Part shown: positions 33,871 through 62,298 of the stretch, one piece after another
Layout: each line of letters begins with the position of its first letter
Position numbering within the stretch: the stretch's first letter is position 1
NCBI RefSeq assembly: GCF_947490415.1
Contig: NZ_CANLGX010000007.1
Location: 61,223 to 125,222, forward strand
DNA from: an uncultured Eudoraea sp.
Lineage (GTDB): Bacteria > Bacteroidota > Bacteroidia > Flavobacteriales > Flavobacteriaceae
DNA length: 64,000 nt
Reading direction: 5' to 3'
Made by a program: the position numbers and the translations under genes
The notes under the pieces: generated by a model
Databases searched by the model: none
Told to the model about the DNA's origin: nothing
The model's input: only the letters and a program-made list of their open reading frames with translations

Positions 33871-34067
33871 TTGAATAGTTTAATTACGAAGTTAGAGAAA
33901 ATTAAAAACACATGTACTTCTAATAACTCATTTCTATTCTAAAGTATTTTTTTCAAAAATTTTCCCAGATTCAAATTATAATGTCTGATGTGGACTGCAT
34001 GAGATAAAAATCAGATCGAATAATGATTCAATTTAGTTAGAGATTCTATTAATTTTTGAGGAACTTT

Positions 34068-35207
34068 ATGGATGAATACACACCCATGCGTAAAAACATT
34101 ACATATTGGATTAAAATTATTCTTTTATTGGTTCTCCTGCAGTCCTGTAAATCGACAACTACCTTAATGAAACAGGAAGCTACTCTGGCTGACAAAATGG
34201 GAAGCAGACAAACTGAATACTTATACAACAGAATTAAAGAGATTGCCAAAGTCGGTTATGCATTTGGACACCAGGATGCCACGGCTTATGGTATGGGCTG
34301 GAAAAACGATGGTAGTATAAAAAGAAGTGATGTTCATGATGTCTCCGGAGCGTATCCCGCAGTTTACGGCTTTGAATTAGGGCATATAGAATTGGGACAT
34401 TCAATAAATCTTGATACCGTAGATTTTAAACTAATGCAAAAGCTCATCCAAAGAGCTCATAAGATGAGAGGAATCGTCACCTTAAGCTGGCATCCTGATA
34501 ATCCGGTATCAAAAAAAAGTGCCTGGGATACTACCGCTGCGGTTACTGAAATCCTTAAAGGAGGAAATTTACACAATGAATACAAGGAATGGCTCTCTAA
34601 ACTGGCGAACTTTATGAACGAGCTTAAAGATGAATCAGGCAATAGCATTCCTGTCGTTTTCAGGCCATTTCATGAAATGAATGGTGACTGGTTCTGGTGG
34701 GGTAAAGGCAATTGCAGCCCGGAAGAATATATTAGTCTTTGGAGAGAAACCTTTGATATTCTTACCAAGGAATATAGCGTTCACAATATGCTTTATGCCT
34801 ACTCCCCTAATACCTTAGAAAAAAAAGAGGATTATCTTAAATATTATCCAGGTGATTTATATGTAGACATATTGGGAATTGACATCTATCAACACGGCAG
34901 CTCTGAAGAGTTTATTGAGGCCCTTAAAAACGATATTGGTCTGTTACAAAAAATAGCGACCGATAAAAACAAACCGTATGTTCTTTCAGAGGCTGGCTTA
35001 AATGAAATCCCAATTGCCAACTGGTGGACCGAGGTTCTAGATCGGCATATAGCCAAAAGCGGGATTTCCTGGGCTTTATTTTGGAGAAATGCGTGGCCAA
35101 ACCACTATTTTGCTCCATATCCCGGACAAGCCAGTGCATCAGATTTTATTTTATATAAAAATTTATCACATGTCTTATTTCTGAATGATGTTAAAAAAAT
35201 CAGGTAG
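34068..35207 (+). CDS. GH26 endo-beta-mannanase, lipoprotein
   Basis: A 379-residue secreted glycoside hydrolase. The leader ends LLVLLQSCK, a clear lipobox, placing it on the envelope surface or in the periplasm. The GH26 TIM barrel shows GHQDATAYGMGW, LSWHPDNP, FRPFHEMNGDWFWWG with the acid/base Glu at about 203, and VLSEAGL with the nucleophile Glu at about 308. It cuts beta-1,4-mannan, most likely releasing mannobiose. The ATG at 34068 follows a GAGGA at 34058-34062; an ATG at 34086 is also possible. It opens the plus-strand mannan operon, and its 3' end overlaps the epimerase gene by 23 bases. Confidence 0.93.
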   Translation: MDEYTPMRKNITYWIKIILLLVLLQSCKSTTTLMKQEATLADKMGSRQTEYLYNRIKEIAKVGYAFGHQDATAYGMGWKNDGSIKRSDVHDVSGAYPAVYGFELGHIELGHSINLDTVDFKLMQKLIQRAHKMRGIVTLSWHPDNPVSKKSAWDTTAAVTEILKGGNLHNEYKEWLSKLANFMNELKDESGNSIPVVFRPFHEMNGDWFWWGKGNCSPEEYISLWRETFDILTKEYSVHNMLYAYSPNTLEKKEDYLKYYPGDLYVDILGIDIYQHGSSEEFIEALKNDIGLLQKIATDKNKPYVLSEAGLNEIPIANWWTEVLDRHIAKSGISWALFWRNAWPNHYFAPYPGQASASDFILYKNLSHVLFLNDVKKIR

Positions 35208-36438
35208 CAAAGACAAAAAACCAGCCGAGAAGCGAGATATAAGTCATGACAAATTTATAAAGCAATCAGTACAGGAACTTGCAAATATTCTAAGCTTTTG
35301 GCAATTAAATACAGTCGATAATTCCTTCAGTGGCTTTTATGGAAGGCGCGATCATTTTAACAGGCTTATCCCAAAAGCTCATAAAGGAATTATACTTAAT
35401 ACACGGATTCTTTGGTCTTTTTCAGCAGCAGGAAATTTTTATGGCAATAACCAATATCTGGAGATTTGTGGCCGGGCTTTTTCTTATTTAAAAGACAAAT
35501 TTAAAGATGAGGAATATGGCGGGGTGTATTGGATGGTGGATTACAAAGGCTTCCCATCAATAACAAGAAAACAAACTTACGCCCAGGCTTTTACCATTTA
35601 TTCCCTTGCTGAATACTATAAATATTCCCGGGACCAAAATGCACTGGACTGGGCATTTGAAATTTTTTATCAATTAGAGAGAATAGCTCTGGACCATAAT
35701 TCAGGGGGGTATATTGAATGCTTTACACGCGATTGGGAGCCCATAGAGGATATGAGACTCAGTGAAAAGGATCTCAATGCCAGTAAGACGATGAATACCC
35801 ATTTGCATATTCTTGAGGCCTACACTACCTTATTCGAAGTAAGCAGGAATGAAAAAGTAGGCAGCGCCCTCGAGAATTTAATCTATTTGGTTTTAGACAA
35901 ATTCTTGACGAAAGATGGCCACTTTAAATTATTTTTTAGCAGCGACTGGAACTCTTTGTCTACCGAAGCATCTTTCGGGCACGATATTGAAGCCGCCTGG
36001 TTATTGATTAATGCCGCTCGTGAATTGGGCAATAAAGAGTTAATTATATCTACAGAATCCATAGCAGTTTCCATAGCCGATTCTTTCTTAAAGAATGCCC
36101 TGGATTGTGATTATGGAGTTTATAACAACATGGATTTGCACACTAAGCAAGTAGACACGGATAAACACTGGTGGCCACAGGCCGAGGCCATTGTTGGTTT
36201 ATTGTATGTGTGGAATATAACGGGAATAAATAAATACCTTGATATTGCCAGTGGCATCTGGACTTTTATTGAACAAACAATTATAGACAAAACAAATGGG
36301 GAATGGTTTTTTAGGGTTAATAAAGAAGGTGTACCTTATGAGAATGAAAATAAGGTTGGTCCCTGGAAATGTCCCTACCACAACAGCAGGGCTTGCATGG
36401 AAATTGCAAGGCTATTGAAACAACCCGGATTGAACTAA
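35185..36438 (+). CDS. AGE-family epimerase, probable cellobiose/mannobiose 2-epimerase
   Basis: A 417-residue (alpha/alpha)6-barrel protein lacking any signal, so cytoplasmic. Conserved histidines stand in NTHLHILEAY (H206), SFGHDIEAAW (H266), KHWWPQAEA (H328) and CPYHNSRACMEI near the C-terminus, as in cellobiose 2-epimerases. Next to GH26 and a mannosylglucose phosphorylase, its likely reaction is mannobiose to mannosylglucose. The N-terminus carries a lysine-rich extension of about 18 residues. Translation starts inside the GH26 gene (23-base overlap), pointing to translational coupling between a secreted and a cytosolic step. Confidence 0.9.
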   Translation: MMLKKSGSKDKKPAEKRDISHDKFIKQSVQELANILSFWQLNTVDNSFSGFYGRRDHFNRLIPKAHKGIILNTRILWSFSAAGNFYGNNQYLEICGRAFSYLKDKFKDEEYGGVYWMVDYKGFPSITRKQTYAQAFTIYSLAEYYKYSRDQNALDWAFEIFYQLERIALDHNSGGYIECFTRDWEPIEDMRLSEKDLNASKTMNTHLHILEAYTTLFEVSRNEKVGSALENLIYLVLDKFLTKDGHFKLFFSSDWNSLSTEASFGHDIEAAWLLINAARELGNKELIISTESIAVSIADSFLKNALDCDYGVYNNMDLHTKQVDTDKHWWPQAEAIVGLLYVWNITGINKYLDIASGIWTFIEQTIIDKTNGEWFFRVNKEGVPYENENKVGPWKCPYHNSRACMEIARLLKQPGLN

Positions 36439-36460: not shown

Positions 36461-37591
36461 ATGAAAACAAGTATCCTATTATTGCTAATTTTTTGTTCTT
36501 TAACGGCTATCTCCTGTAAGGAGAATAATAAAGAAAAACCTAAGGCAACGGTTAGTGAGGCAGATATATGGATGCTTGGCTTCGAAAAAACGGATATAAA
36601 TCCTATTATGACAGCAGATTCCAGTTATGTTTTCATGGACCCCGTAACAAAAGAGGATGTACAATGGCAAAAAGCCGATGTATTTAACCCCGCGGCCGTG
36701 GTGCGGAATGACACTGTTTTTATGCTCTTTAGGGCCGAGGATAACCCTGAAGCCATTTTGGGAGGAAGAACCTCACGCATTGGTCTTGCATACAGCACAG
36801 ACGGAATAAATTTCAGCAAATACCCCGAACCGGTTTTATATCCAAAAGAAGATGAATTTCAGAAGTGGGATTACCCCGGGGGCATCGAAGATCCAAGAGT
36901 AGTTGAAATGCCCGACGGGACTTACCTAATGATGTATACGAGCTGGAACAAAGATGTGGCCAGATTGTCAAGTGCTACATCAAAAGACCTTAAGAATTGG
37001 ACCAAGCATGGGCCGGTTTTTGAAAGTTTTCAAAAAGGGAAATTTAATAATATCTGGAGTAAATCCGGATCAGTAGTAACAGAGTTAAAAAATGGACGGC
37101 TAATCGCTAAAAAAGTAAATGGTAAATTTTTAATGTATTGGGGAGAGTTATTTGTCAATTTAGCACAATCTGAGGACGGTATCGATTGGGAGCCTTATTT
37201 GGATAAAGAAGGTGAACTATTGCATGTTTTTACTCCTTCTATTGGTGAATTTGACAGTCATTTAACCGAACCCGGACCTCCTGCGCTTTATACGGAACAT
37301 GGAATACTTTTGCTTTACAATGGCAAAAATCTAAGTGGAGAAGGCTCCAGTAATAAAGTAGCTGAGGGCACTTATTGCGGAGGTCAGGTATTATTTGATG
37401 TTAAAGATCCATCCCGGTTTATCAAAAGACTTGAGGAGCCGTTTATATGCCCGAGTCTACCGCATGAAACCAGCGGGCAGTACAAGGCGGGGACCACTTT
37501 TATTGAAGGTTTGGTCTTTTATAAAAATAAATGGTTTCTTTATTATGGTACGGCTGACAGTATGGTAGGATTGGCTGTGAAATCGGATTAA
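36461..37591 (+). CDS. Exported GH130-family protein (beta-mannoside hydrolase or phosphorylase), lipoprotein
   Basis: A 376-residue five-bladed beta-propeller. The leader ends LTAISCK with the lipid-attached cysteine at residue 19. GH130 signatures are LFRAEDNP, RTSRIGLAYSTDG, YPGGIEDPRVV with the probable catalytic aspartate D144, and MYTSWNKDVARLSSATS. Export is unusual for a phosphorylase, because no phosphorylated product can be kept outside the membrane. Known exported GH130 members hydrolyse beta-1,2-mannosides, so this one may trim mannosides in the periplasm. It is co-transcribed with the mannanase, epimerase and sulfatase genes, with 22- and 1-base gaps. Confidence 0.88.
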   Translation: MKTSILLLLIFCSLTAISCKENNKEKPKATVSEADIWMLGFEKTDINPIMTADSSYVFMDPVTKEDVQWQKADVFNPAAVVRNDTVFMLFRAEDNPEAILGGRTSRIGLAYSTDGINFSKYPEPVLYPKEDEFQKWDYPGGIEDPRVVEMPDGTYLMMYTSWNKDVARLSSATSKDLKNWTKHGPVFESFQKGKFNNIWSKSGSVVTELKNGRLIAKKVNGKFLMYWGELFVNLAQSEDGIDWEPYLDKEGELLHVFTPSIGEFDSHLTEPGPPALYTEHGILLLYNGKNLSGEGSSNKVAEGTYCGGQVLFDVKDPSRFIKRLEEPFICPSLPHETSGQYKAGTTFIEGLVFYKNKWFLYYGTADSMVGLAVKSD

Positions 37592-37592
37592 A

Positions 37593-39356
37593 ATGAATTT
37601 GAATATAAGTTTCCTGTTACTTCTATTATTCCTGGGGTGTGATACTAAAGAGGAAGGTGGAACAACAGTAAAACGGCCAAATATTGTTTTAATTATAGCA
37701 GATGACCAGGGATGGGGCGATCTAAGTATAAGCGGCAACAGCAATCTCAGCACGCCTAATATTGATGCGCTGGCCCAAAATGGTGTTTCTTTTGAAAATT
37801 TCTATGTTCAGCCTGTTTGTTCTCCTACCAGGGCCGAGATACTATGCGGCAGGCAATTTCAAAGACTTGGAGTTTATGGCACTTCTGCCGGCGGTGAAAG
37901 GCTGAATCTGGACGAAACCACAATTGCTGAGGTATTTAAAAAGGCAGGTTACCAAACAGCAGCCTATGGCAAATGGCACAGTGGCATGCAACCCCCTTAC
38001 CATCCTAATTCACGAGGATTTGATGACTTTTATGGTTTTGCTTCCGGGCATTGGGGTAATTATTTTGATCCGCTCATAGAGCATAACGGCAAACTGGTAA
38101 AAGGAAAAGGGTTTTTGGCAGATGATCTCACCAATAGAGCCCTGGAATTTATAATTAAGAATAAGGAAAAGCCCTTTTTACTTTATGTTCCCTATAACAC
38201 ACCTCATAGCCCAATGCAGGTTCCAGACAAGTATTGGAATAAATTCAAGGATAAGGTATTAACTGAAAAACACCGGGATACCATTATTGAGGATCCCAAC
38301 TTTACAAGGGCCGCACTTGCCATGGTGGAGAATATTGATGATAATGTTGGCAGGATAATAAATAAACTCCAGGAATTAAATTTAGAGGAAAATACCATTA
38401 TCGTATACCTCTCAGACAATGGTCCCAACGGATGGCGTTGGAATGCCGGAATGCGCGGTAAAAAAGGTTCTGTAGACGAAGGTGGTGTGCGTAGTCCTTT
38501 GTTTATCAGTTGGAAAAACACCATCCCAACTTCCAAAAACATAACTCAGATAACAAGCGCTATTGATATCCTACCTACTTTGGCCGGTTTAGCCGGTATT
38601 GAGGTAAAAACTCAAAAACCCCTGGATGGACTTAATACGGAGCCCCTGATTTTTGAAGAAAATCCTTCCTGGGAATCCCGATTTATTTATAACCAATGGA
38701 ATGATAAAACCAGCGTGAGATCACAGGAATTTCGATTGGATGATGAAAACCGGCTTTACCATATTCCATCAGATTTAGGCCAGACACGCGATGTGGCCAA
38801 AGATTACCCCGAGGTGTATATCTCTCACTTAAACGCAAAAGAGAATTGGCAAAAAGAAGTGCCTGTTGCTTCTAAGGCAATAAGGCCATTTACCATGGGG
38901 CATTCAAAATTTATAACTACCCAACTCCCTGCACGTGACGGAATTGCTCATGGTGGAATTAAACGAAGCAACAAATATCCAAATTGTTCCTTTTTTACAA
39001 ATTGGAAGAATCTTGGCGATTCCATCACCTGGGATGTAGAGGTTTTGTCAGATGGTGACTATGAAGTTATTCTGTATTATACCTGTACTAAAAAAAATGT
39101 TGGATCTACCATCCTGCTTGAATTAGATTCCGATAGTCTTAGTAAAAAGATTACTGAATATCATGATACGCCACTCAGCGGTATGGAAAATGACCGGATT
39201 CCCCGAATTGAATCCTATATAAAAGATTTTAAACCTGTTTCCATGGGAATAATGAAATTAAAAAAAGGTAAAGGGCAACTTACCCTTCGGGCATCGGAAA
39301 TAATTGGTGAAGAGGTTATAGATTTTCGATTGCTGCTTTTTAATAAGTTGAATTAG
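37593..39356 (+). CDS. S1-family sulfatase, lipoprotein, with extra C-terminal domain
   Basis: A 587-residue formylglycine sulfatase. The lipobox is LFLGC at 16. The metal site begins IADDQG (D37, D38), and the modified residue is C76 in CSPTRAEILCGR, followed by KWHSG and SDNGPNG. About 120 C-terminal residues after the catalytic domain (from about 465) form an extra beta-rich domain (TWDVEVLSDGDYEVILYY onward) that may bind carbohydrate. Co-transcription with mannanase, epimerase and GH130 suggests it desulfates a mannan backbone or side chain. No sulfatase-maturing enzyme is encoded in the window, so activation depends on one elsewhere. It ends three bases from the convergent sulfatase gene. 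Confidence 0.93.
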   Translation: MNLNISFLLLLLFLGCDTKEEGGTTVKRPNIVLIIADDQGWGDLSISGNSNLSTPNIDALAQNGVSFENFYVQPVCSPTRAEILCGRQFQRLGVYGTSAGGERLNLDETTIAEVFKKAGYQTAAYGKWHSGMQPPYHPNSRGFDDFYGFASGHWGNYFDPLIEHNGKLVKGKGFLADDLTNRALEFIIKNKEKPFLLYVPYNTPHSPMQVPDKYWNKFKDKVLTEKHRDTIIEDPNFTRAALAMVENIDDNVGRIINKLQELNLEENTIIVYLSDNGPNGWRWNAGMRGKKGSVDEGGVRSPLFISWKNTIPTSKNITQITSAIDILPTLAGLAGIEVKTQKPLDGLNTEPLIFEENPSWESRFIYNQWNDKTSVRSQEFRLDDENRLYHIPSDLGQTRDVAKDYPEVYISHLNAKENWQKEVPVASKAIRPFTMGHSKFITTQLPARDGIAHGGIKRSNKYPNCSFFTNWKNLGDSITWDVEVLSDGDYEVILYYTCTKKNVGSTILLELDSDSLSKKITEYHDTPLSGMENDRIPRIESYIKDFKPVSMGIMKLKKGKGQLTLRASEIIGEEVIDFRLLLFNKLN

Positions 39357-39359
39357 ATT

Positions 39360-40988
39360 TTAATCTATAGTATAAAACAAGTCATCACTATCCGTATAAC
39401 CAATCCGAACAGCCTTTGCAATAAATGAAACTTTCTTGTCTAAAGGTTGAGAAAAAATATGCCAGCTGACATCCCCGGGTTGTTTCCATATAATGGTAGC
39501 ATCTGATTTTTTTGAAATCAGATTAATTTTTTCCCCTTTTTCAACCATTTGAAGTGGTTCTAATTTAGGTGGTTCTCCATTTGGACACCACATTTCCATC
39601 AAATCTTTTTCTGGATATCTGCCCAAATCATTGGTTTCTTTGATCCAGGTGTTTAAAACCGTTCTCAGATGAACCAAAGTATCCTGCCATTGTGTTTGGT
39701 CTGAAAGATTCACTAATTCATAAGGATCATTTTGCGTATCGTATAATTCCTCCTCTGGTTTGGGTCTTCTGAACCATAAAGAAGCAAGAGAGTCCAATTT
39801 TCCGGAAGCCTGCAAAGACATCATATTTTGCATCATAGGCATTTGTTCCCGGTATTTAACCGCCATTGCATTTGATATATCGGTATTGTAATTCCTGATA
39901 TACTTAAATCTCTTAGTTCGAACGGCGCGTAATTTATCATACATTTCGTCAAACCTGTCTGAAGTGGCGAAAACATACTTGCTTGCCGTACTGTCTTTAT
40001 AAACTCCAAATCGTGCCTTGCCCTGCATGACCTTCGGAGGGTTTATGCCCGCCCAGGAAAGAAGGGTTGGGGCAAAATCTATAAAACTTAAAAGTTGGTC
40101 ATCGTAACTGCCTTTTTTTAAATTATCCTGAAATTTAATAACCAAAGGCAGTTTTATACCCGTATCATACAAAGCGCGTTTATGCCTTGGAAAGGGACCC
40201 CCATGATCCCCATAAAAGAAAATAATACTGTTCTCATATAGGCCGTCTTCCTTTAATTGATTAATAATTGCACCCAATTGTTCATCCAAACGTTTTAAGT
40301 TGGAGTAATTAACCGCCAGATCATGGCGAATAACATCATTATCAGGAAAATATGGTGGAACGGTTATGGAATCTGGTGAAACGAATAATTCTTCTTCTCC
40401 TTGTTTCCAGATACCTGATTCATGACAAACATTAAAATTAAAAACGGAAAAAAAAGGAGCGGCTTTAGGCCTGTTCCTCCAATGTGCAGTTGAACTGCTT
40501 TCATCCCAACCAGATTCGGGGGCTTTAAAATTGTAATCCTCTTTGGCGTTATTAGTGCAGTAATAACCTTCTTTTCTCAAGTATTCTGTAAACATTTTAA
40601 CTCCGTCCGGAACTATAGGGGAATAACTGGGAATCCCTATAGATGGCTGATTCTCCATAGAATAGGCATTATAAGTGCGCATATTATGAGTACCTAATGT
40701 AGTTGGGTACATCCCTGTTATAATGGCACTTCTGGTAGGGGCACAAACCGGTACAGGCGTATAGGCATTTGTAAAAACTACACCATCCGAAGAAAGCGAT
40801 TCAATATTAGGCAGAGCGATTGTACTATCACCGTACATCGGAAAAAAATCGGGCGATTGATCCTCTGCGACCAACCAGATAATGTTTGGCTTAATTTGGG
40901 CTTCACTTTGTATTTCATTATTTTTACATCCAGTCCCGAATGCAAAGAACATAGAACACCAAAGGATTGATCTAATAACTATTCTCAA
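39360..40988 (-). CDS. S1-family sulfatase, lipoprotein
   Basis: A 542-residue sulfatase with lipobox FGTGC at 21, metal aspartate in VAEDQSPD, formylglycine precursor C82 in PVCAPTRSAIITG, and the FYGDHGGPFPRHKRALYDTG active-site segment. It is the last gene of the minus-strand operon GMC oxidoreductase, subunit 3, TIM-barrel, sulfatase; its ATG overlaps the stop of the TIM-barrel gene by four bases (ATGA). That tight link suggests a desulfation step tied to the oxidative module rather than a stand-alone enzyme. Its sequence differs from the other two sulfatases here, so the three probably act on different positions or linkages. Confidence 0.93.
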   Translation of the reverse strand: MRIVIRSILWCSMFFAFGTGCKNNEIQSEAQIKPNIIWLVAEDQSPDFFPMYGDSTIALPNIESLSSDGVVFTNAYTPVPVCAPTRSAIITGMYPTTLGTHNMRTYNAYSMENQPSIGIPSYSPIVPDGVKMFTEYLRKEGYYCTNNAKEDYNFKAPESGWDESSSTAHWRNRPKAAPFFSVFNFNVCHESGIWKQGEEELFVSPDSITVPPYFPDNDVIRHDLAVNYSNLKRLDEQLGAIINQLKEDGLYENSIIFFYGDHGGPFPRHKRALYDTGIKLPLVIKFQDNLKKGSYDDQLLSFIDFAPTLLSWAGINPPKVMQGKARFGVYKDSTASKYVFATSDRFDEMYDKLRAVRTKRFKYIRNYNTDISNAMAVKYREQMPMMQNMMSLQASGKLDSLASLWFRRPKPEEELYDTQNDPYELVNLSDQTQWQDTLVHLRTVLNTWIKETNDLGRYPEKDLMEMWCPNGEPPKLEPLQMVEKGEKINLISKKSDATIIWKQPGDVSWHIFSQPLDKKVSFIAKAVRIGYTDSDDLFYTID

Positions 40989-41824
40989 AGGGTTTTAAGA
41001 AATTTAAGACTTTGAGGTACCTGTTCTACAACCCTGGAACACTCATCTTCAATAAACATATATTTCACAAAACCAAGCTCTTTGGATCGCTTCACTATTC
41101 CAGCAATATCTACCTGTCCTGTGCCCAGTACTACGTTGGTCTCAACATCTTCATGCCCTGTATTGTTGCCTTTTACTCCATGCTCCATGTCTTTAAGGTG
41201 TAGCAATACAACCTTATCAGGATAGCGATTCAAAAGTGCAAGTGGATCTCCTCCTCCATGATGTACCCAATACACATCCATCTCAAAAGCAAAATGATTG
41301 GCATTTTTTGCCATATAGTCAAATAGAGTGCCATCCTCATATGGCCTGAATTCATAACCATGAGCGTGATATGCCAGAGTAATCCCCTCTTCTTTTAGTC
41401 GTTTCCCTGCTTTATTAAAAACCTCGGTAGCTTCTTTAGTTTTGGCAATATCAAAGGTATTTCCATCATGTGGAATCCATGCGCACATTACATATTTGGC
41501 ACCAAATGTTTTAGCATTTTGAACGACCTTCTCAATATCATTCTGCAGGTCCTCATAACCGGCACCCACACTAACCATATCCAGATTATTATCCTTGAGT
41601 AATTTTTTATACTCGTCCATTGGAAGTCCATAACTACCCCCACCTTCTATTTTAGTAATTCCCCATTCATTAACCAGTTTAAGGGTTCCCTGAACATCAG
41701 TTTTAAACTGATTTCTTAAGCTGTACAACTGTAACCCTACTTCCTGAGCAACAATCTGATAAGTACTAAACTGACAACATAAAATTGCCACGCTCAGAAT
41801 TAAAATATTATTTTTTTTCATCAT
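40985..41824 (-). CDS. Exported sugar isomerase/epimerase-like TIM-barrel protein
   Basis: A 279-residue xylose-isomerase-like TIM barrel with a cleavable signal (about 1-26, ending QIVAQ), hence periplasmic. Metal-binding positions typical of the fold are visible: AYHAHGYEF, FEMDVYWVHHGG, LLHLKDM and MFIEDECS. Periplasmic proteins of this type located beside sugar 3-dehydrogenases have been shown in other Bacteroidota to act on 3-keto-glycosides (beta-elimination or related steps). That context is present here, since the GMC dehydrogenase and its partner are encoded just upstream. The precise reaction is inferred, not shown. Confidence 0.87.
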   Translation of the reverse strand: MMKKNNILILSVAILCCQFSTYQIVAQEVGLQLYSLRNQFKTDVQGTLKLVNEWGITKIEGGGSYGLPMDEYKKLLKDNNLDMVSVGAGYEDLQNDIEKVVQNAKTFGAKYVMCAWIPHDGNTFDIAKTKEATEVFNKAGKRLKEEGITLAYHAHGYEFRPYEDGTLFDYMAKNANHFAFEMDVYWVHHGGGDPLALLNRYPDKVVLLHLKDMEHGVKGNNTGHEDVETNVVLGTGQVDIAGIVKRSKELGFVKYMFIEDECSRVVEQVPQSLKFLKTL

Positions 41825-41839
41825 GTTATTAAATTTTAT

Positions 41840-42556
41840 TTACGTCAATAAATTTCCATTATCATCCCATTCCGCAATTACGCCTCGCTTACTTTGATCC
41901 ACACATTTAGCGAGCCATTCCTCATCATAAGCTAACCCATGCTGTTGCAGTACATCTTCAGGCACACCATCCCAAACGTTCGGCATATTCCCTTTATAGC
42001 CCAGCTCTTCAATACCAATTTTAGAGGTATAATATCCGGTAAGTGTTAGGTTTCGCATTAATGAGAAAAATTGTATTTCCAGTGGTTGCTCATCCATGGG
42101 AATTTTGGAATCATAAAAAGCGATTAGATCCAGTATTTGTTTTTGTTGCTCTTCAGTAATCGACTTAAATTCCGCACCAAAATCAGTATTACTTTTATGA
42201 TCGAGCCACATTAGGCCTCCGCGTAAATCTGTCTGTAATTTAGGAACGTCTTTAGCCATAAATTCAATGAATTCTGGAACTCCGGCGTCTGTAGCCCCAC
42301 CAAATTTATCATTCGGGGGCATTATCAGATTACTCAGTATCGCAATGGTACCCAATTCATGCTCATTAAAAAATTGTTCAGAATTTAATTTCTCAATAAG
42401 CTCTTTCTCTTCCGGTGTCCTCCCAAAGTGATTTTCACCTGATTTAACTGCTGCAATTTCCTCAGTACTTGCTGCTTCAGGTTTACAACCATGAACAACC
42501 AGACCGCCGGCAACGGTTCCAAGTAAGATTGATTTAATACTCTTCCTTCTATCCAT
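41840..42556 (-). CDS. Gluconate 2-dehydrogenase subunit 3-like protein, Tat lipoprotein
   Basis: A 238-residue protein with a twin-arginine leader (DRRKSIKSILLG) that ends in a lipobox (VVHGC). The mature part carries the subunit 3 pattern LSNLIMPPNDKFGGATDAGVPEFI and FFSLMRNLTLTGYYTS. In FAD-dependent sugar dehydrogenases the small subunit carries the Tat signal and brings the signal-less flavin subunit across the membrane with it. Here the large subunit, encoded three bases upstream, indeed has no signal. The two proteins should form a membrane-anchored periplasmic dehydrogenase. Confidence 0.9.
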   Translation of the reverse strand: MDRRKSIKSILLGTVAGGLVVHGCKPEAASTEEIAAVKSGENHFGRTPEEKELIEKLNSEQFFNEHELGTIAILSNLIMPPNDKFGGATDAGVPEFIEFMAKDVPKLQTDLRGGLMWLDHKSNTDFGAEFKSITEEQQKQILDLIAFYDSKIPMDEQPLEIQFFSLMRNLTLTGYYTSKIGIEELGYKGNMPNVWDGVPEDVLQQHGLAYDEEWLAKCVDQSKRGVIAEWDDNGNLLT

Positions 42557-42559
42557 TTT

Positions 42560-44278
42560 TTAGATATTTTGCTGTTTTAATTGTTCTACAATGTAGTCTG
42601 ATGCGCGCCAGGACAAGGCCAGAATGGTCCAGGTGCAGTTTTTATCTCCCTGCGAAACAAACGGACCAGCATCAGTTATAAAAACATTATTGACATCATG
42701 TAACTGTTGAAATTTATTTACCACCGACTTTTTTGGGTCATCGCCCATTCTCGTGGTTCCTACCTCATGGATTATTCTACCAGGAGCTAAAAGGCCATAA
42801 TCCTCTTCTTTTGACGGTGTATCACCCAGAACTTCTCCTCCCATATTGTGGATAAGTTCTTCAAATGTGGACTGCATATGCCTGGCCTGATTTCTTTCAA
42901 AATCTGACCAATTATAATTGAAACGAAGTACCGGAATTCCGAATTGATCGACGGTAGTCGGATCTATTTCACAATAGTTATCCTCTCTTGCAACCGCCTC
43001 TCCACGTCCTCCAAAACCCAGGACAGAGCCGTAATATTTTTTTACGTCCTTGCGTAAACTTTCGCCGTAACCTCCCGTGGGTAGGTTAAAAAATTTATTA
43101 AACTCATTTGGGTTAAATCCAAAGCCATAATTAGGCATCCGCATTCCACCCCAGACCTCAATATGATAACCCCGGGGGAAATCTAAATTCTTATTATCAA
43201 GCCACCAGGGTGTATAAACATGCATACCGCCTACCCCATCTTCATTGTATACTTTCCGATTCATCAGACCCGGGATAAATCCGGCCCGGCTGCTTCCCGT
43301 AGAGTCATGAAGATACTTCCCAACAACATTACTGCTGTTTCCAAGCCCATTGGGATGCTGTTTGCTTTTTGAATTCAGGAGAATTCGCGCCGAACTGCAC
43401 GCAGAAGCTGCAAGTACTACAACTTTTGCCTTTAGCTGGTACTCTTTGCGATCGTCCTTATTAATATATGAGACCCCTGTTGCTTTTCCCTCTTCATTCG
43501 TTGTTACTTCCCGTACAACAGAATTCACATAGAGGTCGACCTGACCTCCACTTTTCTGAGCAGGAAAAATTAAACAGGAACCTGCAGAAAAATCAGCATA
43601 TACCTGGCAGGAACGAGAACACTGGCCGCAGTAAAAACATACCCCTCGATCGTTGTTTATTTTTTTCGTAAGCATAGACATTCTGGAAGGAATAACCGGA
43701 ATATTGGATTTACGCGCACCTTTAATATACATAAGCTCATGCAGTCTCGGTTTTGGTGGTGGCAGAAAAAATCCATCCGGATCATTAGGAAGTCCTTCAT
43801 TGGTGCCGAAGACCCCAATAAGTTTGTCTACCTTATCGTAATATGGTTTTACATCTTCATAACCAATTGGCCAATTGTCACCAAGGCCATCTATATCTTT
43901 ATGCTTAAAATCTTTTGGTCCAAAACGCAGTGAAATTCTTCCCCAGTGGTTGGTTCTTCCCCCAAGCATATGCGACCTGTACCAATCGAATTTCGTGCCT
44001 TCTTTTCGCGTGTAAGGTTCGCCTTCTATTTCCCAGCCACCGTACGCCATATCAAATTCACCAAAATCTCTGGTAGTATTTGCGCCTCTTCGCGGTGATT
44101 CGTAAGGCCATTTTAACTGGGTCATTTGCTCCGGATCTGCAGGATCAAAAAAAGGTCCTGCTTCAACAACAGCAATTTTTAGACCAGCGTCTGCCAGGAC
44201 TTTGGCTGACATGCCTCCACCGGCACCTGAACCAACTATTATTGCATCATACATAGTTGGTGATTCTTTTATTTGCAT
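42560..44278 (-). CDS. GMC-family FAD/Fe-S sugar dehydrogenase, large subunit
   Basis: A 572-residue flavoprotein with the FAD loop IIVGSGAGGGMSA (about 12-25), a ferredoxin-like cysteine set C214-x2-C217-x2-C220-x3-C224 and the C-terminal GMC region HEVGTTRMGDDP plus FITDAGPFVSQGDKNCTWTILALSWRASDYI-type end. The cysteine set is a feature of glucoside 3-dehydrogenases and related sugar dehydrogenases that pass electrons to cytochromes. No signal peptide is present; export is expected through the subunit 3 partner. The likely reaction is oxidation of a sugar C3 hydroxyl to a 3-keto sugar, inferred from family and neighbours. It is the first gene of the operon. Confidence 0.9.
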   Translation of the reverse strand: MQIKESPTMYDAIIVGSGAGGGMSAKVLADAGLKIAVVEAGPFFDPADPEQMTQLKWPYESPRRGANTTRDFGEFDMAYGGWEIEGEPYTRKEGTKFDWYRSHMLGGRTNHWGRISLRFGPKDFKHKDIDGLGDNWPIGYEDVKPYYDKVDKLIGVFGTNEGLPNDPDGFFLPPPKPRLHELMYIKGARKSNIPVIPSRMSMLTKKINNDRGVCFYCGQCSRSCQVYADFSAGSCLIFPAQKSGGQVDLYVNSVVREVTTNEEGKATGVSYINKDDRKEYQLKAKVVVLAASACSSARILLNSKSKQHPNGLGNSSNVVGKYLHDSTGSSRAGFIPGLMNRKVYNEDGVGGMHVYTPWWLDNKNLDFPRGYHIEVWGGMRMPNYGFGFNPNEFNKFFNLPTGGYGESLRKDVKKYYGSVLGFGGRGEAVAREDNYCEIDPTTVDQFGIPVLRFNYNWSDFERNQARHMQSTFEELIHNMGGEVLGDTPSKEEDYGLLAPGRIIHEVGTTRMGDDPKKSVVNKFQQLHDVNNVFITDAGPFVSQGDKNCTWTILALSWRASDYIVEQLKQQNI

Positions 44279-44457: not shown

Positions 44458-45336
44458 TTATAATACTCTTCGAATACCGGAAAAATCCTGCCTGTATTGA
44501 GTAGGCGTACTGCCTTTGCTTTTTCTAAAAACCCGGTTAAAATTTGCAATACTATTAAAACCGCACATAAAGGCTATTTCGGATATGCTCAAATCTCTTT
44601 CAATTAACCATTTGGAAGCATAACCTATACGAATATCATTTACATATTCTACAAATGTCTTACCGGTTCGCTTCTTAATAAATCTATTAAATGAAACACT
44701 ACTCATATTCATTATATCTGCAACTTCCTGAAGGGTCATTTTTGCCGAATAATTATCCTGAACATAATCATATAATGTTTTGAGTTTTTTATTGTGCTCA
44801 AAGTCTTCCAGCAGAATTGTGGTCGTAGACAGCAACCGTTGATTTCTTGAAGTCGCCAGGTCATATAAAATTGAAAATAGTTCCATAAAGTAATCGATTC
44901 CACCCAGTTTTGATACTTTCAGTATTCTCGGAGCCATATTACGAGTTACTTCTTCGGAAAAAAGAATTCCATGAGCCGACCTATCAAACAAGTCTTTTAA
45001 GGGTTTCATAATTCTACGGCCAAGAAAAGCGGAATTGAGTAGATCATTGTGAAATTGAATCGTTATTTCATGTATATTTTTTTTTGTACACTCATGTTGT
45101 TCCCAGCCATGAAAAAGATTAGAGCCAACCAATACTAATTCTAGATTGTCAATTTCTTCAATGCTGTCGCCTACAATTCTGCGGATTCCTTTTCCATTGG
45201 AGATAAAGTTCAGTTCTAATTCCGGATGGAAGTGCACTGGATAATCAAAAAAATCCTTCACTCTGTCGAAAACTAGAAAACTGTCTTCATTAGAAAGAGG
45301 TGTGATCTCACGATGAATTTTTTTTAATAATTCCAT
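44458..45336 (-). CDS. AraC-family transcriptional regulator
   Basis: A 292-residue regulator with an N-terminal cupin-like sensor (about 20-100, with FPVHFHPELELNFISNGKG-like pattern) and a C-terminal double helix-turn-helix (about 190-287). The latter shows LQEVADIMNMSSVSFNRFIKKRTGKTFVEY and SISEIAFMCGFNSIANFNRVFRKSKGSTPTQYR, a canonical AraC/XylS signature. It stands between the oxidative operon and the symporter-phosphorylase operon, which it faces divergently, and probably controls one or both in response to a sugar. No SusR-type or hybrid two-component regulator is present. Confidence 0.93.
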   Translation of the reverse strand: MELLKKIHREITPLSNEDSFLVFDRVKDFFDYPVHFHPELELNFISNGKGIRRIVGDSIEEIDNLELVLVGSNLFHGWEQHECTKKNIHEITIQFHNDLLNSAFLGRRIMKPLKDLFDRSAHGILFSEEVTRNMAPRILKVSKLGGIDYFMELFSILYDLATSRNQRLLSTTTILLEDFEHNKKLKTLYDYVQDNYSAKMTLQEVADIMNMSSVSFNRFIKKRTGKTFVEYVNDIRIGYASKWLIERDLSISEIAFMCGFNSIANFNRVFRKSKGSTPTQYRQDFSGIRRVL

Positions 45337-45535: not shown

Positions 45536-47359
45536 ATGCTGCAGGGAATAGATATTGCAATAATCCTATTATATCTTTTAGCTACAGTGCTTATTGGTCT
45601 TATACTCCGCAAAAGGGCACAAAGAAGCAAAGATGATTATTTACTTGGCGGCAAATCCCTGCCCTGGTATATGCTCGGTCTTTCCAATGCCTCAGGGATG
45701 TTTGATATTTCCGGGACCATGTGGCTGGTTACCTTAACCTTTGTATACGGTTTAAAAAGTATTTGGATACCCTGGCTTTGGCCTGTTTTTAATCAGATAT
45801 TTTTAATGATCTACCTAAGCGCCTGGTTAAGGCGTTCCAATGTCACAACCGGGGCTGAATGGATTTTGTTCAGATTTGGTGAAGGCAGGGGCGGCAAATT
45901 ATCACATACCGTTGTTGTGGCTTTTGCCATTATTAGTTGCCTTGGCTTTTTGGCCTATGGATTTATTGGCCTGGGGAAGTTTGTTGAAATATTTATTCCC
46001 TGGGAAATAGTCAGCGGTTATATTCCTTTTGATGTCCCGCTGGAATATGTCCCCCATTTCTATGGCACTGTTTTTACCTTGTTCGCTGTATTTTATTCGG
46101 TGCTTGGCGGTATGTCCGGTATTGTATGGGCAGACCTTTTACAATTTACAATAATGACCATTTCCTCATTTGCCATAGCTTTCATAGCCTGGCAGGCAAT
46201 GGGCTCAAATACCCTGAACGTTCCAGAAGGTTGGATGGATCCCTTTTTTGGATGGACTCTGGATATTGATTGGACTGGTCTTATTGCAGAAGTTAACGAC
46301 AAAATTGCTTCAGACGGCTATACATTATTTGGATTGTTCTTTATGTTGGTTGTCTTCAAAGGTATTCTGGCCAGTATCGCCGGTCCTGCACCAAATTATG
46401 ATATGCAGAAAATACTATCTACCAAATCACCAAAAGAAGCTGCAAAAATGAGTGGATTCGTGTCGATTGTTCTTATGCCTACCAGGTATCTTATGATAGG
46501 TGGTTTTGCAGTATTGGGTATCCTATTTTATGATCAGTTGGATCTACAACGTGCCGGAATTATTGATTTTGAAAATATTCTTCCCTCGGCCATAAGTAAA
46601 TTTGTGCCTGTTGGTTTAATGGGTCTTTTACTGGCTGGCTTATTGGCTGCATTTATGTCCACTTTTGCAGGAACCTTAAACGCGGCTCAGGCCTATATTG
46701 TAAATGATGTTTACTTAAGATATAAAAAAGATGCAAAACCAAAAGAGGTGAAATGGATGAACTATGGCAGTGGTATCCTGGTTGTCATAGTGAGTATTGC
46801 TTTGGGGTTTTTCGTCGAGGATGTGAATTCTGTTTTACAATGGATAGTTTCTGCCCTATGGGGAGGTTATGTAGTTTCTAATACTTTAAAATGGCACTGG
46901 TGGCGATTTAACGGCTACGGTTATTTTTGGGGAATGGTATCGGGCCTGATACCTGCAATTATTTTTCCACTGGTCTTTAAAGAAACGCTGGAACTTTATC
47001 TTTTCCCCCTGTTTCTTATAATTACCACCCTTGGCTGTATAATTGGAACTTATATGGGGCCGCCTACCAATGAAGCCACTCTAATTAATTTTTATAAAAA
47101 GACAAGGCCCTGGGGTTTTTGGAAACCCATACAAGAAAAAGTTAGTGCTCAGTATCCGGATTTTGTAAAAAACAAAATGTTCAAAATGGACATGTTTAAT
47201 ATTTTTATTGGTACCGCAGCTCAGACACTTTTGGTAATTATGCCTATATATTTAATCCTAAGAGAATATACGTCCTTATGGATATCGCTTGCGATTTTTG
47301 CTGTTTGCGGTTTTCTCCTTAAAAAATTCTGGTGGGATAAGTTAGACCAACAAATGTAA
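45536..47359 (+). CDS. Sodium:solute symporter (SSS family), probable mannooligosaccharide uptake
   Basis: A 607-residue inner-membrane protein with about 14 hydrophobic segments and SSS landmarks: [64 protein letters not shown]. It is co-transcribed with the mannosylglucose phosphorylase gene (gap of a few bases). In the known Bacteroides fragilis mannan system a sugar transporter stands beside the epimerase and phosphorylase genes, so this protein most likely imports mannobiose or another short product with sodium. Substrate is inferred. Confidence 0.92.
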
Positions 47360-47363
47360 CGTG

Positions 47364-48557
47364 ATGGAAACAGGCAGGCTAAAAAACCAAAAACGGATTT
47401 GGAATTATGAGCAGCTTATGAGAAATCATCAGCAACTTATAAATATGCCTAATGATGCAATTCCGGAAAATAATGGGATAATCACCAGATATGAGTATCC
47501 GGTGATTACTGCTGAACATATACCAATAAACTGGCGGTACGATTTAAATGCAGCGTCTAATCCATATGGCTTAGAACGTATAGGTGTTAATGCAGCATTT
47601 AATGCGGGGGCAATTAAATGGAATGATAAATATACACTTGTGGTAAGAGTTGAAGGCAGCGATAGGAAATCTTATTTTGCCTTTGCAGATAGCCCGGATG
47701 GAATAAATAAATTTAAATTCTGGGAAAAGCCTTTACTGCTTCCACAATTAAATGACCCTGATATTAATGTCTATGATATGCGGTTGATTGCTCATGAAGA
47801 TGGATTTGTTTATGGTATTTTTTGTGCTGAAAGAAAAAATCCGGATGCGCCACACGGGGACACTTCTTCTGCAATCGCAAACGCAGGCATCATCAGATCA
47901 AGGGATCTTAAAAACTGGGAGCGCTTACCCGACTTAATTTCGGGATCCAACCAGCAAAGGAATGTGACTTTGCACCCGGAATTTGTTCAAGGTAAATACG
48001 CCCTGTACACAAGACCACAGGATGGATTTATTGAAACTGGATCCGGAGGAGGTATTGGGCTGGGATTTATAGATGACATGACCCACCCCGAGGTTGTTGA
48101 CGAGATAATTATAAACCAAAAAGCCTATCATACTATATATGAATTGAAAAACGGGTTGGGACCTTCACCAATTAAAACGAAAGAAGGGTGGCTTCACCTG
48201 GCACATGGAGTACGCAATACGGCCGCAGGTTTAAGATATGTATTATATCTTTTTATGACAGATCTGCGGGATATATCTAAAGTCATTTATCAGCCCGGGG
48301 GTTATTTTATGGCTCCGAATACTAAAGAGATTGTAGGAGATGTGGGAAATGTTCTTTTTTCTAATGGTTGGATAGCAGATAATGACGGAACCGTTTTTAT
48401 CTATTATGCGTCTTCAGACACCAGAACCCATGTAGCCACCACGTCGATAAATATTTTGGTCGACTATTGCAAAAACACGCCCACAGATAGGTTATCAACC
48501 AATGAATCTGTAAAAAGCATATTAAACTTAATTGAAATGAATGAAATACAGCATTAA
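47364..48557 (+). CDS. 4-O-beta-D-mannosyl-D-glucose phosphorylase (GH130_1)
   Basis: A 397-residue cytoplasmic enzyme. The sequence matches known mannosylglucose phosphorylases throughout: [50 protein letters not shown] with the catalytic aspartate at about 138, [20 protein letters not shown] and [11 protein letters not shown]. It uses phosphate to split mannosylglucose into mannose-1-phosphate and glucose, saving one ATP. A GTG three bases earlier is an alternative start. It directly follows the symporter and is closed by the hairpin at 48691-48728. Together with the AGE epimerase it makes the known mannobiose pathway complete. Confidence 0.95.
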
Positions 48558-48991: not shown

Positions 48992-51900
48992 ATGATTCTA
49001 AAAAGTGATTATCACTCGTTAAAATCTTGTGCTGGCAAAATCAGCAGGTCCAGTATCAAGGTTTTTTCATTACTTATGGGGCTTGTTTGTTCGTTTGCTC
49101 TTGCAGCACCGACAACAAGTCTCGAAACAGTAACGACGATTGAAGCATTTCAATCCACCATCACAGGAACTATTACAGATGCAAGCGGGGTTCCGCTTCC
49201 TGGAGCGAATGTGGTAATTAAAGGCACTTCAACTGGTGCCGCGGCTGATTTTGATGGAAATTATTCCATCCAGGCCAGTCCCGGAGATGTCCTGGTGTTT
49301 TCTTACACCGGTTACAATTCGGCAGAATTGACAGTGGGTAGCTCCAGTGTTATAAATGCAACTCTTGAAGAAGGGCTTGCATTAGACGAAGTTGTAGTAA
49401 CAGGGTATACCACTGAGTCAAAAAGGGAAACCACAGCAGCGGTATCCATTGTTAGTGCCGAGGAGCTGGCAGCAATTCCTTCCGGTAACGTGGAACAACA
49501 ATTAGCTGGTAGGGTTGCCGGTGTTACAGTAATCACTAATGGCCAGCCAGGAACTCAAAGTCAGGTGCGGGTTCGTGGATATGGTGGTTTTGGTGGTAAC
49601 CAACCACTTTATATAGTAGATGGGGTACCTATTCAAAATATTGATTTCTTAAGCCCGGACGATATTGCTACGACCACAGTGCTTAAAGACGCTGCTGCGG
49701 CATCCATTTATGGGGCAAGAGCAGCAAACGGTGTAATTGTTTATACAACAAAACAAGGATCACGCGGAGATCGAAAAACCAACATTTCAATTAATATTCA
49801 AAGTGGTATTACCGATCCCAATGTAGCAGGATCTCCAAAAATGCTGAACCCTCAGGATATGGCCAATTATACGCATATTGGCTATCGAAATAATGCTGCG
49901 GCTAACGGAACTGAACCACAGTATACACATCCGCAATACGGTTCTAATGCAACACCAACTTTTCCTGATTATCTGCATGCAGATGGGCAGAATGGTGTTT
50001 CTGCCAGCGATATAAATTTAGCTCAGATTCAGGCAAATTATGAAGCAGATCCCGAAAATGTCTTTTTAATCAGGCCAAACCTTGCAGGAACAGACTGGTA
50101 TAGAGAAATTACCAGGGTTGCACCGGCTACAAGGATTAGCGTTGGTTTTGATGGAGGTAACGAGAATGGTCGCTTCTATGTAGGATTAAATATGCAGTCT
50201 ATAGATGGTATTCTTTTGTCGAACAGCCAGGACAGGTATACTGCCCGTTTTAATTCAGAATTTGATCTGGCACCCTGGTTAAGTATTGGTGAAAATCTGC
50301 AGATTACATATCAATCAATTGTAGGCCAAACCGGTGGTAACGGGGGACAAGGTATTGCGAATGATGAATCTGAAATTCTTTCAGCCTATCGTATGCCAAC
50401 GATTATCCCGGTATTTGATGAATTTGGCAGCTATGCCAGTACAAGGGCCGCAGGTTTTAATAACCCGCGTAACCCGGTGAGAAGATTAAAACAAGACAGA
50501 GGTGATGATAAGGCCTTTTCAACAAGTGCCATTGGTAATTTTTATGCACTGATCAAACCTTTTGAGGGCTTTACTTTTAGAAGTAGTATAGGTGGGTTCT
50601 ATTATAATTTTAACAATCTAGATTACAATTACAGGTATTTGGGAGATTCTGAACCACAGGCTAGTTATAGTTTTAGTGAAGGTTCAGAATATGGCTTCTC
50701 ATGGACATTTACGAACACCATTACCTATGAGAAATTAATTGCTGACAAACACAAATTAAAAGTTTTAGTAGGTCAGGAAGCAATTGAAGGGACAAATACC
50801 CCGGTAGCCGCGCCTCAGGGAAGAAGAATTCAAGGTTCCGGTATCAACCCGTTCTCTACAGATTTAGATTTTGTAACGCTCTCTGCAGTACAGAGCCCGG
50901 TAGTTCAAAGTTTTATAAGAAAAGGTGTTAATTTTAGTTCTTTATTTGGCCAGTTGCAGTACAACTATGACGAAAGATATTATGTTTCTGGGGTTGTTCG
51001 GCGAGACGGTTCTTCCGTATTCGGGGCTAACAACAGATATGGTACCTTTCCTGCATTCTCAGGAGCCTGGAGGATTGTTGGTGAATCCTTTATGGATAAC
51101 CAAAACTTTTTTCAGGATTTAAAAGTTCGAGTTGGCTGGGGACAAATGGGTAACTCCAACAACGTAGACCCTGCTAACCAGTTTTCTTTGGCAGCCTCGG
51201 CTTTGGATAATACTTTTTATCCCATACAAGGTCAAAGTAGTGGTGCCGATGAAGGTTTTGCTACCAGCCGTATAGGGAACCCGGATGCTAAATGGGAAAC
51301 CAGTACTACTACCAACATAGGTTTTGATGCTACTATTATTGACAACCATTTAGATATTGAATTCGACTGGTGGAAACGCGATACCGAAGACCTATTATTC
51401 CGTGTACCATTAGCAGGTGTAACCGGCAACTTCGCCCAGGCACCAGCCAGAAATGTGGGTTCTATGCTTAACCGGGGAATTGACTTACGAGTAGTTTATA
51501 AAGGAAATTTCACAGAAGATTTTACATTTGAATTTGCGGTTAATAACACCTTCCTTAAAAATGAAGTGTTATCATTTGCACCAGGTATCGACTTTTTGGA
51601 TGGAGATGGTTTTAGAGGAATATTTCCTACAAGGAACCAGATTGGAAAGCCATTATCTTCCTTTTTTGGTTATGATGTAATAGGTTACTTCGAAAGTGCG
51701 GCAGATGTTGCTTCTTCTCCTTCACAGGACGGAGCAGGTGTAGGTAGATTTAAATATAGGGATGTTGACGGAGATGGTGCAATTACCCCGGAAGACAGAA
51801 CCTATCTTGGTGATCCTATAGCGAATTACAGCGGTGGGGCAACTATAGATTTGAAATATAAGGATTTAAGAATGGAGATGTTCTGGAACTGGTCTACTGG

Positions 51901-52327: not shown

Positions 52328-52383
52328 GACCTTGATTATGAATAATTATGATAAAATTTTAATTATATTTGAAAAAAAAAGTT

Positions 52384-59332: not shown

Positions 59333-59339
59333 AATTTGG

Positions 59340-61067: not shown

Positions 61068-61107
61068 ATTTTATGATTATCCCCAGCTTGTTTCCACATA
61101 AATAATA

Positions 61108-62202: not shown

Positions 62203-62298
62203 CTGCGTTATTCTTTGACTTCAATAAATATAGTATATTGAACACGGAACCCAAACGAAATTTCTAAAACTTAAAAGTAAAAGCATCGTAATGAGGAA

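What the first reader, a model, noticed from the sequence alone, without database searches (positions are those of the whole stretch)
39360..44278. Periplasmic oxidation module (GMC dehydrogenase, Tat subunit, TIM-barrel protein) tied to a sulfatase
Four minus-strand genes with gaps of 3 and 15 bases and a 4-base overlap encode an FAD/Fe-S GMC dehydrogenase without signal, its Tat-lipoprotein partner, an exported xylose-isomerase-like barrel and a sulfatase. The first three look like the oxidise-then-eliminate route through 3-keto-glycosides known from other Bacteroidota and proteobacteria. Linking it by ATGA overlap to a sulfatase inside a beta-mannan locus suggests a route for breaking linkages that ordinary glycosidases cannot reach, for instance next to sulfated residues. 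I am not aware of this exact arrangement being described.
Basis: partly seen in the sequence, partly recalled or inferred. Interest (0 to 1): 0.75.

Follow-up and report, generated by a model that had tools for sequence, protein, structure and literature searches.

The report
Sulfatase-linked oxidise-then-split sugar operon
Four adjoining genes of a marine bacterium, kept in the same order in many related genera, likely encode a sulfate-removing enzyme together with a pair that would oxidise a sugar and then split it off by elimination instead of hydrolysis, probably to take apart a sulfated algal mannan.

Summary
The order recurs: GMC - Tat subunit - barrel(s) - sulfatase in 26 of 120 fetched loci around close GMC orthologues, and 3 more lack only the barrel; with this genome, 30 genomes in 20 genera. 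Thirty of the 33 closest sulfatases in 397 family genomes lie at such a locus. The barrel's nearest solved relatives by sequence are 3-keto-glycoside lyases (AL1, BT1, AtOGE), and the metal ligands and catalytic His described for AtOGE are present and conserved. GMC orthologues elsewhere sit beside 3-keto-disaccharide hydrolase genes. The sulfatase is closest to S1_8 enzymes (2-O-sulfatases), the locus carries a beta-1,4-mannan toolkit, and Codium beta-mannan is sulfated at C-2. Best reading: a periplasmic oxidise-then-eliminate pathway coupled to desulfation of beta-mannan fragments. Substrate, C3 regiochemistry and order of steps are inferred. Against tight coupling, 91 of 120 GMC loci lack the sulfatase, and relatives of it occur without the GMC. 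New variant of a known kind.

The parts
42560..44278 (-). GMC flavoprotein, predicted catalytic subunit of a periplasmic glycoside 3-dehydrogenase; no signal peptide seen; C214-x2-C-x2-C-x3-C224 motif, H504 and N547
   Evidence: four Cys, H504, N547 invariant in 121 of 121 aligned sequences
41840..42556 (-). Gluconate_2-dh3 small subunit, twin-arginine lipoprotein-like, presumed export partner of the GMC
   Evidence: RR and Cys24 in 117 of 118
40985..41824 (-). AP_endonuc_2 TIM barrel with export leader, predicted 3-keto-glycoside 1,2-lyase; H153, H155, D183, H209, E259
39360..40988 (-). S1 sulfatase, lipoprotein-like, nearest to S1_8 (2-O-sulfatases); CAPTR formylglycine motif; TTG start overlapping the barrel stop
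37593..39356 (+). Second S1 sulfatase (nearest solved: iota-carrageenan / S1_19 type), convergent neighbour, seen in 24 of 29 sulfatase loci
36461..37591 (+). GH130 nearest to the BT3780 beta-1,2-mannosidase model
35185..36438 (+). Cellobiose 2-epimerase-like protein
34056..35207 (+). GH26, predicted beta-mannanase
44458..45336 (-). AraC-type regulator directly upstream of the four genes
45536..47359 (+). SSF sodium:solute symporter
47361..48557 (+). GH130, nearest to 4-O-beta-D-mannosyl-D-glucose phosphorylase
48992..52327 (+). SusC-like TonB-dependent transporter
52369..54144 (+). SusD-like glycan-binding protein

Best explanation
The four genes likely form a periplasmic module that would desulfate the non-reducing end of beta-mannan fragments, oxidise that sugar at C3 and then release it by elimination instead of hydrolysis. 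Proposed steps: (1) the S1_8-like sulfatase removes a sulfate, most likely at O-2, from the terminal mannose (inferred); (2) the GMC flavoprotein, carried across the membrane with its Tat subunit, oxidises C3 of that residue (inferred from family and gene neighbours); (3) the Mn-type barrel takes the H-2 proton with His155 and expels the rest of the chain from C1 as a 3-keto-glycoside 1,2-lyase (active-site residues shown, reaction inferred); (4) the GH26, GH130s, epimerase and SusCD of the same locus handle the desulfated mannan (inferred). Shown: gene order, families, active-site residues, conservation. Not shown: substrate, regiochemistry, order of steps, fate of electrons and of the keto product.
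For: Four-gene order in 26 of 120 loci, plus 3 lacking only the barrel; with this genome, 30 genomes in 20 genera. 30 of the 33 sulfatase matches over 650 bits and 55 of the 62 barrel matches over 298 bits in 397 genomes lie beside a GMC. GMC and sulfatase identities agree (r 0.73, n 30, 0 of 999 permutations). The sulfatase occurs with the window-type barrel (27 of 35 loci) and not where only another barrel is present (0 of 14). GH130b, SSF, GH26 and epimerase genes were seen only at sulfatase loci (7, 5, 3, 2 of 29; 0 of 91 each). Barrel matches to AL1, BT1 and AtOGE, with residues matching AtOGE H132, H134, D163, H189, E233. GMC orthologues beside PF06439 in 10 of 120 and near it in 7 of 40 loci. 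S1_8 sulfatases are the top five PDB sequences, 229-262 bits against 102 for the next. S1_8 acts on 2-sulfates; Codium beta-1,4-mannan carries 2-sulfate.
Confidence: 0.5

Rival explanations
1. The first three genes do run a 3-keto-glycoside route, but on a different sugar (a side chain or an unrelated glycoside), and the sulfatase merely shares the transcript, acting on another residue or at another stage.
For: GMC-subunit pairs without sulfatase dominate (63 GMC-SUB and 18 GMC-SUB-BARREL of 120); sulfatase relatives occur without GMC; GMC orthologues sit in varied contexts, including glycerol kinase genes in 5 of 120 loci.
Against: The sulfatase, when present, is the next same-strand gene after the subunit or barrel in 29 of 29 loci and goes with one barrel type.
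Confidence: 0.22
2. The barrel does not cleave glycosides: it is a hydratase, epimerase or isomerase of a keto-sugar, and the cleavage is done by one of the 3-keto-disaccharide hydrolases encoded elsewhere in the genome.
Against: By profile at E up to 1e-5 the six matches are AL1, BT1, AtOGE, 8tcs (title not seen; aligns like AL1) and two unassigned structures; the AtOGE catalytic residues are kept; no PF06439-like ORF was found at the 29 sulfatase loci.
Confidence: 0.15
3. The GMC pair oxidises free sugars or simple alcohols (as its nearest solved relatives do), feeding electrons to respiration, and the barrel isomerises the product; no glycosidic bond is cut.
For: Top PDB matches are glucose and fructose dehydrogenases (138 and 122 bits); GMC beside glycerol kinase genes in 5 of 120 loci.
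Against: Orthologues beside 3-keto-disaccharide hydrolases in two sets of loci; lyase-like barrel next door.
Confidence: 0.1

Closest known systems
LacABC-type periplasmic lactose/glucoside 3-dehydrogenase with DUF1080 3-ketoglycoside hydrolase (Caulobacter, Pedobacter; PMC9007349, passages read)
   Same: Periplasmic oxidation of glycosides, reported in Bacteroidota too; orthologues of this GMC lie beside or near PF06439 (DUF1080) genes in 17 of 160 loci. That LacA is a GMC protein and LacC the small subunit is recalled
   Different: No DUF1080 hydrolase and no cytochrome c gene found at this locus; a lyase-like barrel and a sulfatase instead; no direct sequence comparison with LacA was made
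3-keto-beta-glucopyranoside-1,2-lyases AL1 and BT1 (PDB 8tcd, 8tcr, 8tct; titles; original paper recalled, not read) and AtOGE (8bvk; PMC10628242, passages and section 8 read)
   Different: 20-29% identity; setting is a mannan locus with sulfatases, not glucosides or flavonoids
S1_8 2-O-sulfatases of the lambda-carrageenan PUL (9bba, 9bbd, 9bb9; PMC12549532, passages and sections 6 and 12 read)
   Same: Closest solved sulfatases by over 125 bits, formylglycine motif
   Different: Substrate there is galactose-2-sulfate; here a mannan context
[quoted passage not shown] MAR_2010_75 (PMC9860051, passages read)
   Same: GH26, GH130 mannosylglucose phosphorylase, epimerase, AraC regulator, symporter, SusCD
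   Different: That paper's main text has no occurrence of sulfatase, oxidoreductase or dehydrogenase

Membership tests
Periplasmic glucoside 3-dehydrogenase (LacABC type) | GMC flavoprotein with FAD site and catalytic His and Asn | tested here: met
   Pfam; GSGAGGG; H504 and N547 in 121 of 121; that these are the catalytic pair is recalled GMC knowledge
Periplasmic glucoside 3-dehydrogenase (LacABC type) | Small subunit of PF13618 with Tat motif next to it, catalytic subunit without signal | tested here: met
   gap 3 bases; that this defines the type is recalled
Periplasmic glucoside 3-dehydrogenase (LacABC type) | Third component LacB encoded with it (recalled as a cytochrome c) | tested here: not met
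   No CxxCH in window ORFs of 60 aa or more; no CxxCH ORF under 260 aa within 4 kb of the GMC in 120 loci; so it is said to work like LacABC, not filed as one
Periplasmic glucoside 3-dehydrogenase (LacABC type) | Oxidation at C3 of a glycoside | not testable with these tools
   needs assay
3-keto-glycoside 1,2-lyase / beta-eliminase | AP_endonuc_2 barrel with AL1, BT1, AtOGE as nearest characterised sequences | tested here: met
   in the structural second look an isomerase ties with them
3-keto-glycoside 1,2-lyase / beta-eliminase | Metal ligands and catalytic His of AtOGE (H132, D163, H189, E233; H134) | tested here: met
   H153, D183, H209, E259; H155, invariant in 42 sequences
3-keto-glycoside 1,2-lyase / beta-eliminase | Cleavage of a 3-keto-glycoside | not testable with these tools
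   needs assay
S1_8 sulfatase | S1 formylglycine motif CxPxR | tested here: met
   Cys and Arg in 30 of 30 (C70 and R74 counted from the ATG, C82 and R86 in the 542-aa protein)
S1_8 sulfatase | Assignment by SulfAtlas subfamily model | not tested
   No such library here; only PDB neighbours
S1_8 sulfatase | 2-O-sulfate specificity | not testable with these tools
   inferred from PMC12549532
DUF1080 3-keto-disaccharide pathway | PF06439 hydrolase at the locus | tested here: not met
   No PF06439 among the 20 window proteins scanned, the four genes included, nor by BLAST in the window ORFs of 120 aa or more or at 29 sulfatase loci; copies elsewhere in the genome
Beta-1,4-mannan PUL | GH26, GH130 mannosylglucose phosphorylase, 2-epimerase, SusC/SusD | tested here: met

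The most novel reading that the evidence does not exclude
A sulfatase-gated redox route for beta-mannan: an exo-2-O-sulfatase, a C3-dehydrogenase and a dedicated 3-keto-mannoside lyase work in succession on the same terminal residue, giving marine flavobacteria a non-hydrolytic way through C2-sulfated algal mannan.
Probability: 0.33. Interest if true: 0.78.

Novelty: new variant of a known kind. Interest (0 to 1): 0.6.

Why it matters
Oxidation followed by elimination is a recently recognised alternative to glycoside hydrolysis. If this module does what its parts suggest, that chemistry extends to marine mannan and is built together with desulfation, which would bear on how sulfated algal polysaccharides are degraded. 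It also gives concrete candidate enzymes: a predicted mannose-2-sulfatase and a 3-keto-mannoside lyase.
Full report
Observation. The four genes are present as described: GMC 42560-44278, small subunit 41840-42556, barrel 40985-41824, sulfatase 39360-40988, all minus strand, gaps 3 and 15, overlap 4. The overlap is TTGA and the sulfatase starts with TTG; the next in-frame ATG lies 32 bases past the barrel stop. The same TTGA junction is kept in five other Eudoraea-like loci (L038, L163-L166; L167 is the same record region as L038), and ATGA occurs in L043/L170, L057/L171 and L059. Overlap is not the rule, though: of 27 junctions in the main set (window and 26 loci) four besides the window overlap by 4 and one by 1; the other 21 have gaps or no nearby start. 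Families are as. The genus is inferred to be Eudoraea: genome G304, of the same genus as G000, has a contig of the same length as NZ_KB907555.1, E. adriatica, and named relatives at the head of the protein lists are Eudoraea.

Conservation of the GMC. Of 397 family genomes, 121 have a match at E up to 1e-120; outside this genome the identities run 65-97%, against 30-35% for the four full-length paralogues in this genome. I fetched 120 loci covering 121 of the 125 places outside this genome; G280:C44, G250:C10, G297:C30 and G194:C188 were left out. The small subunit is the gene directly downstream in 116 of 120; the other four are L048 (a small ORF between), L069, L141 and L149. Four Cys in the pattern C-x2-C-x2-C-x3-C, His504 and Asn547 are invariant in 121 of 121 GMC sequences; Arg3, Arg4 and Cys24 of the subunit are present in 117 of 118, the last having a gap. 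Three of the four Cys align with Cys of glucose dehydrogenase; that those bind an Fe-S cluster is recalled.

Conservation of the four-gene order. GMC-SUB 63, GMC-SUB-BARREL-SULFA 22, GMC-SUB-BARREL 18, GMC-SUB-DUF1080 5, GMC-SUB-BARREL-BARREL-SULFA 4, GMC alone 4, GMC-SUB-SULFA 3, GMC-SUB-BARREL-BARREL 1 (total 120). So 26 of 120 have the full order and 29 of 120 have the sulfatase, in each as the next same-strand gene. With this genome that is 30 genomes and 20 genera. Seen from the sulfatase, the 33 matches over 650 bits in 397 genomes include 30 beside a GMC; the exceptions are G325:C41, G389:C1 and G216:C12. The next matches drop to 567 bits and end near residue 465. Seen from the barrel, 55 of the 62 matches over 298 bits are beside a GMC; the 8 weaker listed matches (43-49% identity) are not, by their places. 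A scan of named genomes (80 loci kept of 215) shows GMC, subunit and sulfatase together in L163-L171, 9 loci, eight of them with a barrel; no GMC was labelled in the other 71, some of which have short flanks. Among these, L172-L181 carry a sulfatase at about 60% identity. Outside the family, 40 GMC loci (G623 and the fragment G770 left out) have the subunit in 36 and no sulfatase of this type. The full module therefore looks confined to this family in what I sampled.

Coupling statistics. Pairwise identities of GMC and sulfatase correlate at r 0.73 (n 30, 0 of 999 permutations as high); joint inheritance gives this, and so does shared species history. Sulfatase presence needs about 14 changes on the GMC tree against a mean of 27 for shuffled labels, so it has been gained or lost often. 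The second, convergent sulfatase (37593-39356) is present in 24 of 29 sulfatase loci and 5 of 91 others; GH130b, SSF, GH26 and the epimerase are in 7, 5, 3 and 2 of 29 and in none of 91; the BT3780-type GH130 is in 8 of 29 and 14 of 91, so it is not tied to the sulfatase. Barrels fall into two types that occur side by side or fused in nine loci. The sulfatase occurs in 27 of 35 loci with the window type and in 0 of 14 with only another barrel, two of the 14 (L077, L095) holding distant barrels (branch support 0.71, Fisher p 5e-7 without correction for relatedness).

What the dehydrogenase pair does. Direct evidence for C3 oxidation is absent. Context speaks for it: PF06439 3-keto-disaccharide hydrolase genes of one cluster are adjacent in 10 of 120 family loci. 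In five of those the locus also has two AP_endonuc_2 barrels, a Gfo/Idh/MocA protein, an MFS transporter and an AraC regulator, as named from cluster representatives. A BLAST check finds PF06439-like ORFs in 14 of 120 loci, none of them among the 29 sulfatase loci and none in the window. In loci from other families it lies on the same strand near the GMC in 7 of 40 (L273, L277, L285, L287, L288, L292, L295), with one more on the other strand in L260. PMC9007349 (passages) describes LacABC working with DUF1080 in Caulobacter and proposes it for Bacteroidota. This genome also has a separate region with two GMC paralogues, a protein beginning MDRRVALK (presumed Tat subunit, not scanned), AP_endonuc_2- and Gfo/Idh/MocA-like proteins and two PF06439 genes (C1:1012000-1044000), and 13 PF06439 matches in all. 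Against: five loci place the GMC pair beside a glycerol kinase-type gene, four of them also with MIP and GlpD-type genes and one with MIP alone, which could mean glycosylglycerol or another substrate; and no cytochrome c was found near.

What the sulfatase does. Five S1_8 sequences lead the PDB list at 229-262 bits, and the next is at 102. The second sulfatase of the locus instead leads with iota-carrageenan, S1_19 and S1_16 enzymes and lists no chain named S1_8 among its 57 matches at E up to 1e-20, which serves as a control. PMC12549532 (passages and sections 6 and 12) assigns 2-O-sulfatase activity to S1_8A-C on galactose and cites xylose-2-sulfate and N-sulfoglucosamine activities in S1_8. 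PMC7550628 (passages) reports Codium 4-linked beta-D-mannan sulfated on C-2 and less on C-6. The window locus carries GH26, a mannosylglucose phosphorylase (571 bits to 3was), an epimerase-like protein and SusC/SusD. Joining these gives the prediction of a mannose-2-sulfatase; it is an inference, and no call shows it.

Mechanism and rivals. A 2-sulfate would sit next to the C3 being oxidised and on the carbon whose proton the lyase removes, so removing it first is chemically sensible (inference). I commit to desulfation, C3 oxidation, then 1,2-elimination at the non-reducing end, at 0.5. Rivals are that the sulfatase is only a passenger (0.22), that the barrel is a hydratase or isomerase with cleavage by a distant DUF1080 (0.15), and that the GMC acts on free sugars or alcohols (0.1).

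Novelty. Each enzyme kind is known. The combination with a sulfatase in a mannan locus was not seen in the listings. The characterised Muricauda beta-mannan PUL paper has no occurrence of sulfatase or oxidoreductase in its main text (PMC9860051, passages), and PMC6298971 (passages) labels its beta-mannan PUL example non-sulfated. PMC13063451 (passages) concerns C6-sulfated alpha-1,3-mannan of diatoms, a different polymer. Nasseri and others (2024), which I recall as the source of AL1 and BT1, was not found in the library searches and was not read. Verdict: new variant of a known kind.

Noticed in passing
L039, L043, L057, L086, L106 (tandem); L058, L062, L105, L118 (fused, 528-529 aa): Two barrel paralogues side by side or fused into one protein, both with a complete active site.
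   Followed up: partly
L108, L116, L133, L139, L146: GMC orthologue and subunit directly upstream of a glycerol kinase-type gene, with MIP and mostly GlpD-type genes; might point to glycosylglycerol use.
   Followed up: no
G000:C1:1012000-1044000 (L249, L250): A separate canonical-looking 3-keto region in the same genome: two GMC paralogues, a presumed Tat subunit, AP_endonuc_2-like, Gfo/Idh/MocA-like and two PF06439 genes.
   Followed up: partly
cluster c8, e.g. L099:2670-4778: A PF03190 (thioredoxin/DUF255) type protein of about 660-700 aa, often directly upstream of the GMC; in 16 of 29 sulfatase loci and 8 of 91 others (one member scanned).
   Followed up: no
window 57824-63033: A second cluster with another S1 sulfatase, a GH9 protein, a bile-acid-type symporter and an esterase-like protein, next to the SusCD and an FG-GAP/ASPIC protein.
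   Followed up: no
L172-L181: Marine MAGs carry a roughly 60% identical sulfatase with no GMC in the flank held; in 7 of the 10 a bile-acid-type symporter lies just upstream.
   Followed up: partly
window 42560-44278: The C-x2-C-x2-C-x3-C motif is invariant in this GMC group but was not found in the four GMC paralogues of the genome.
   Followed up: no
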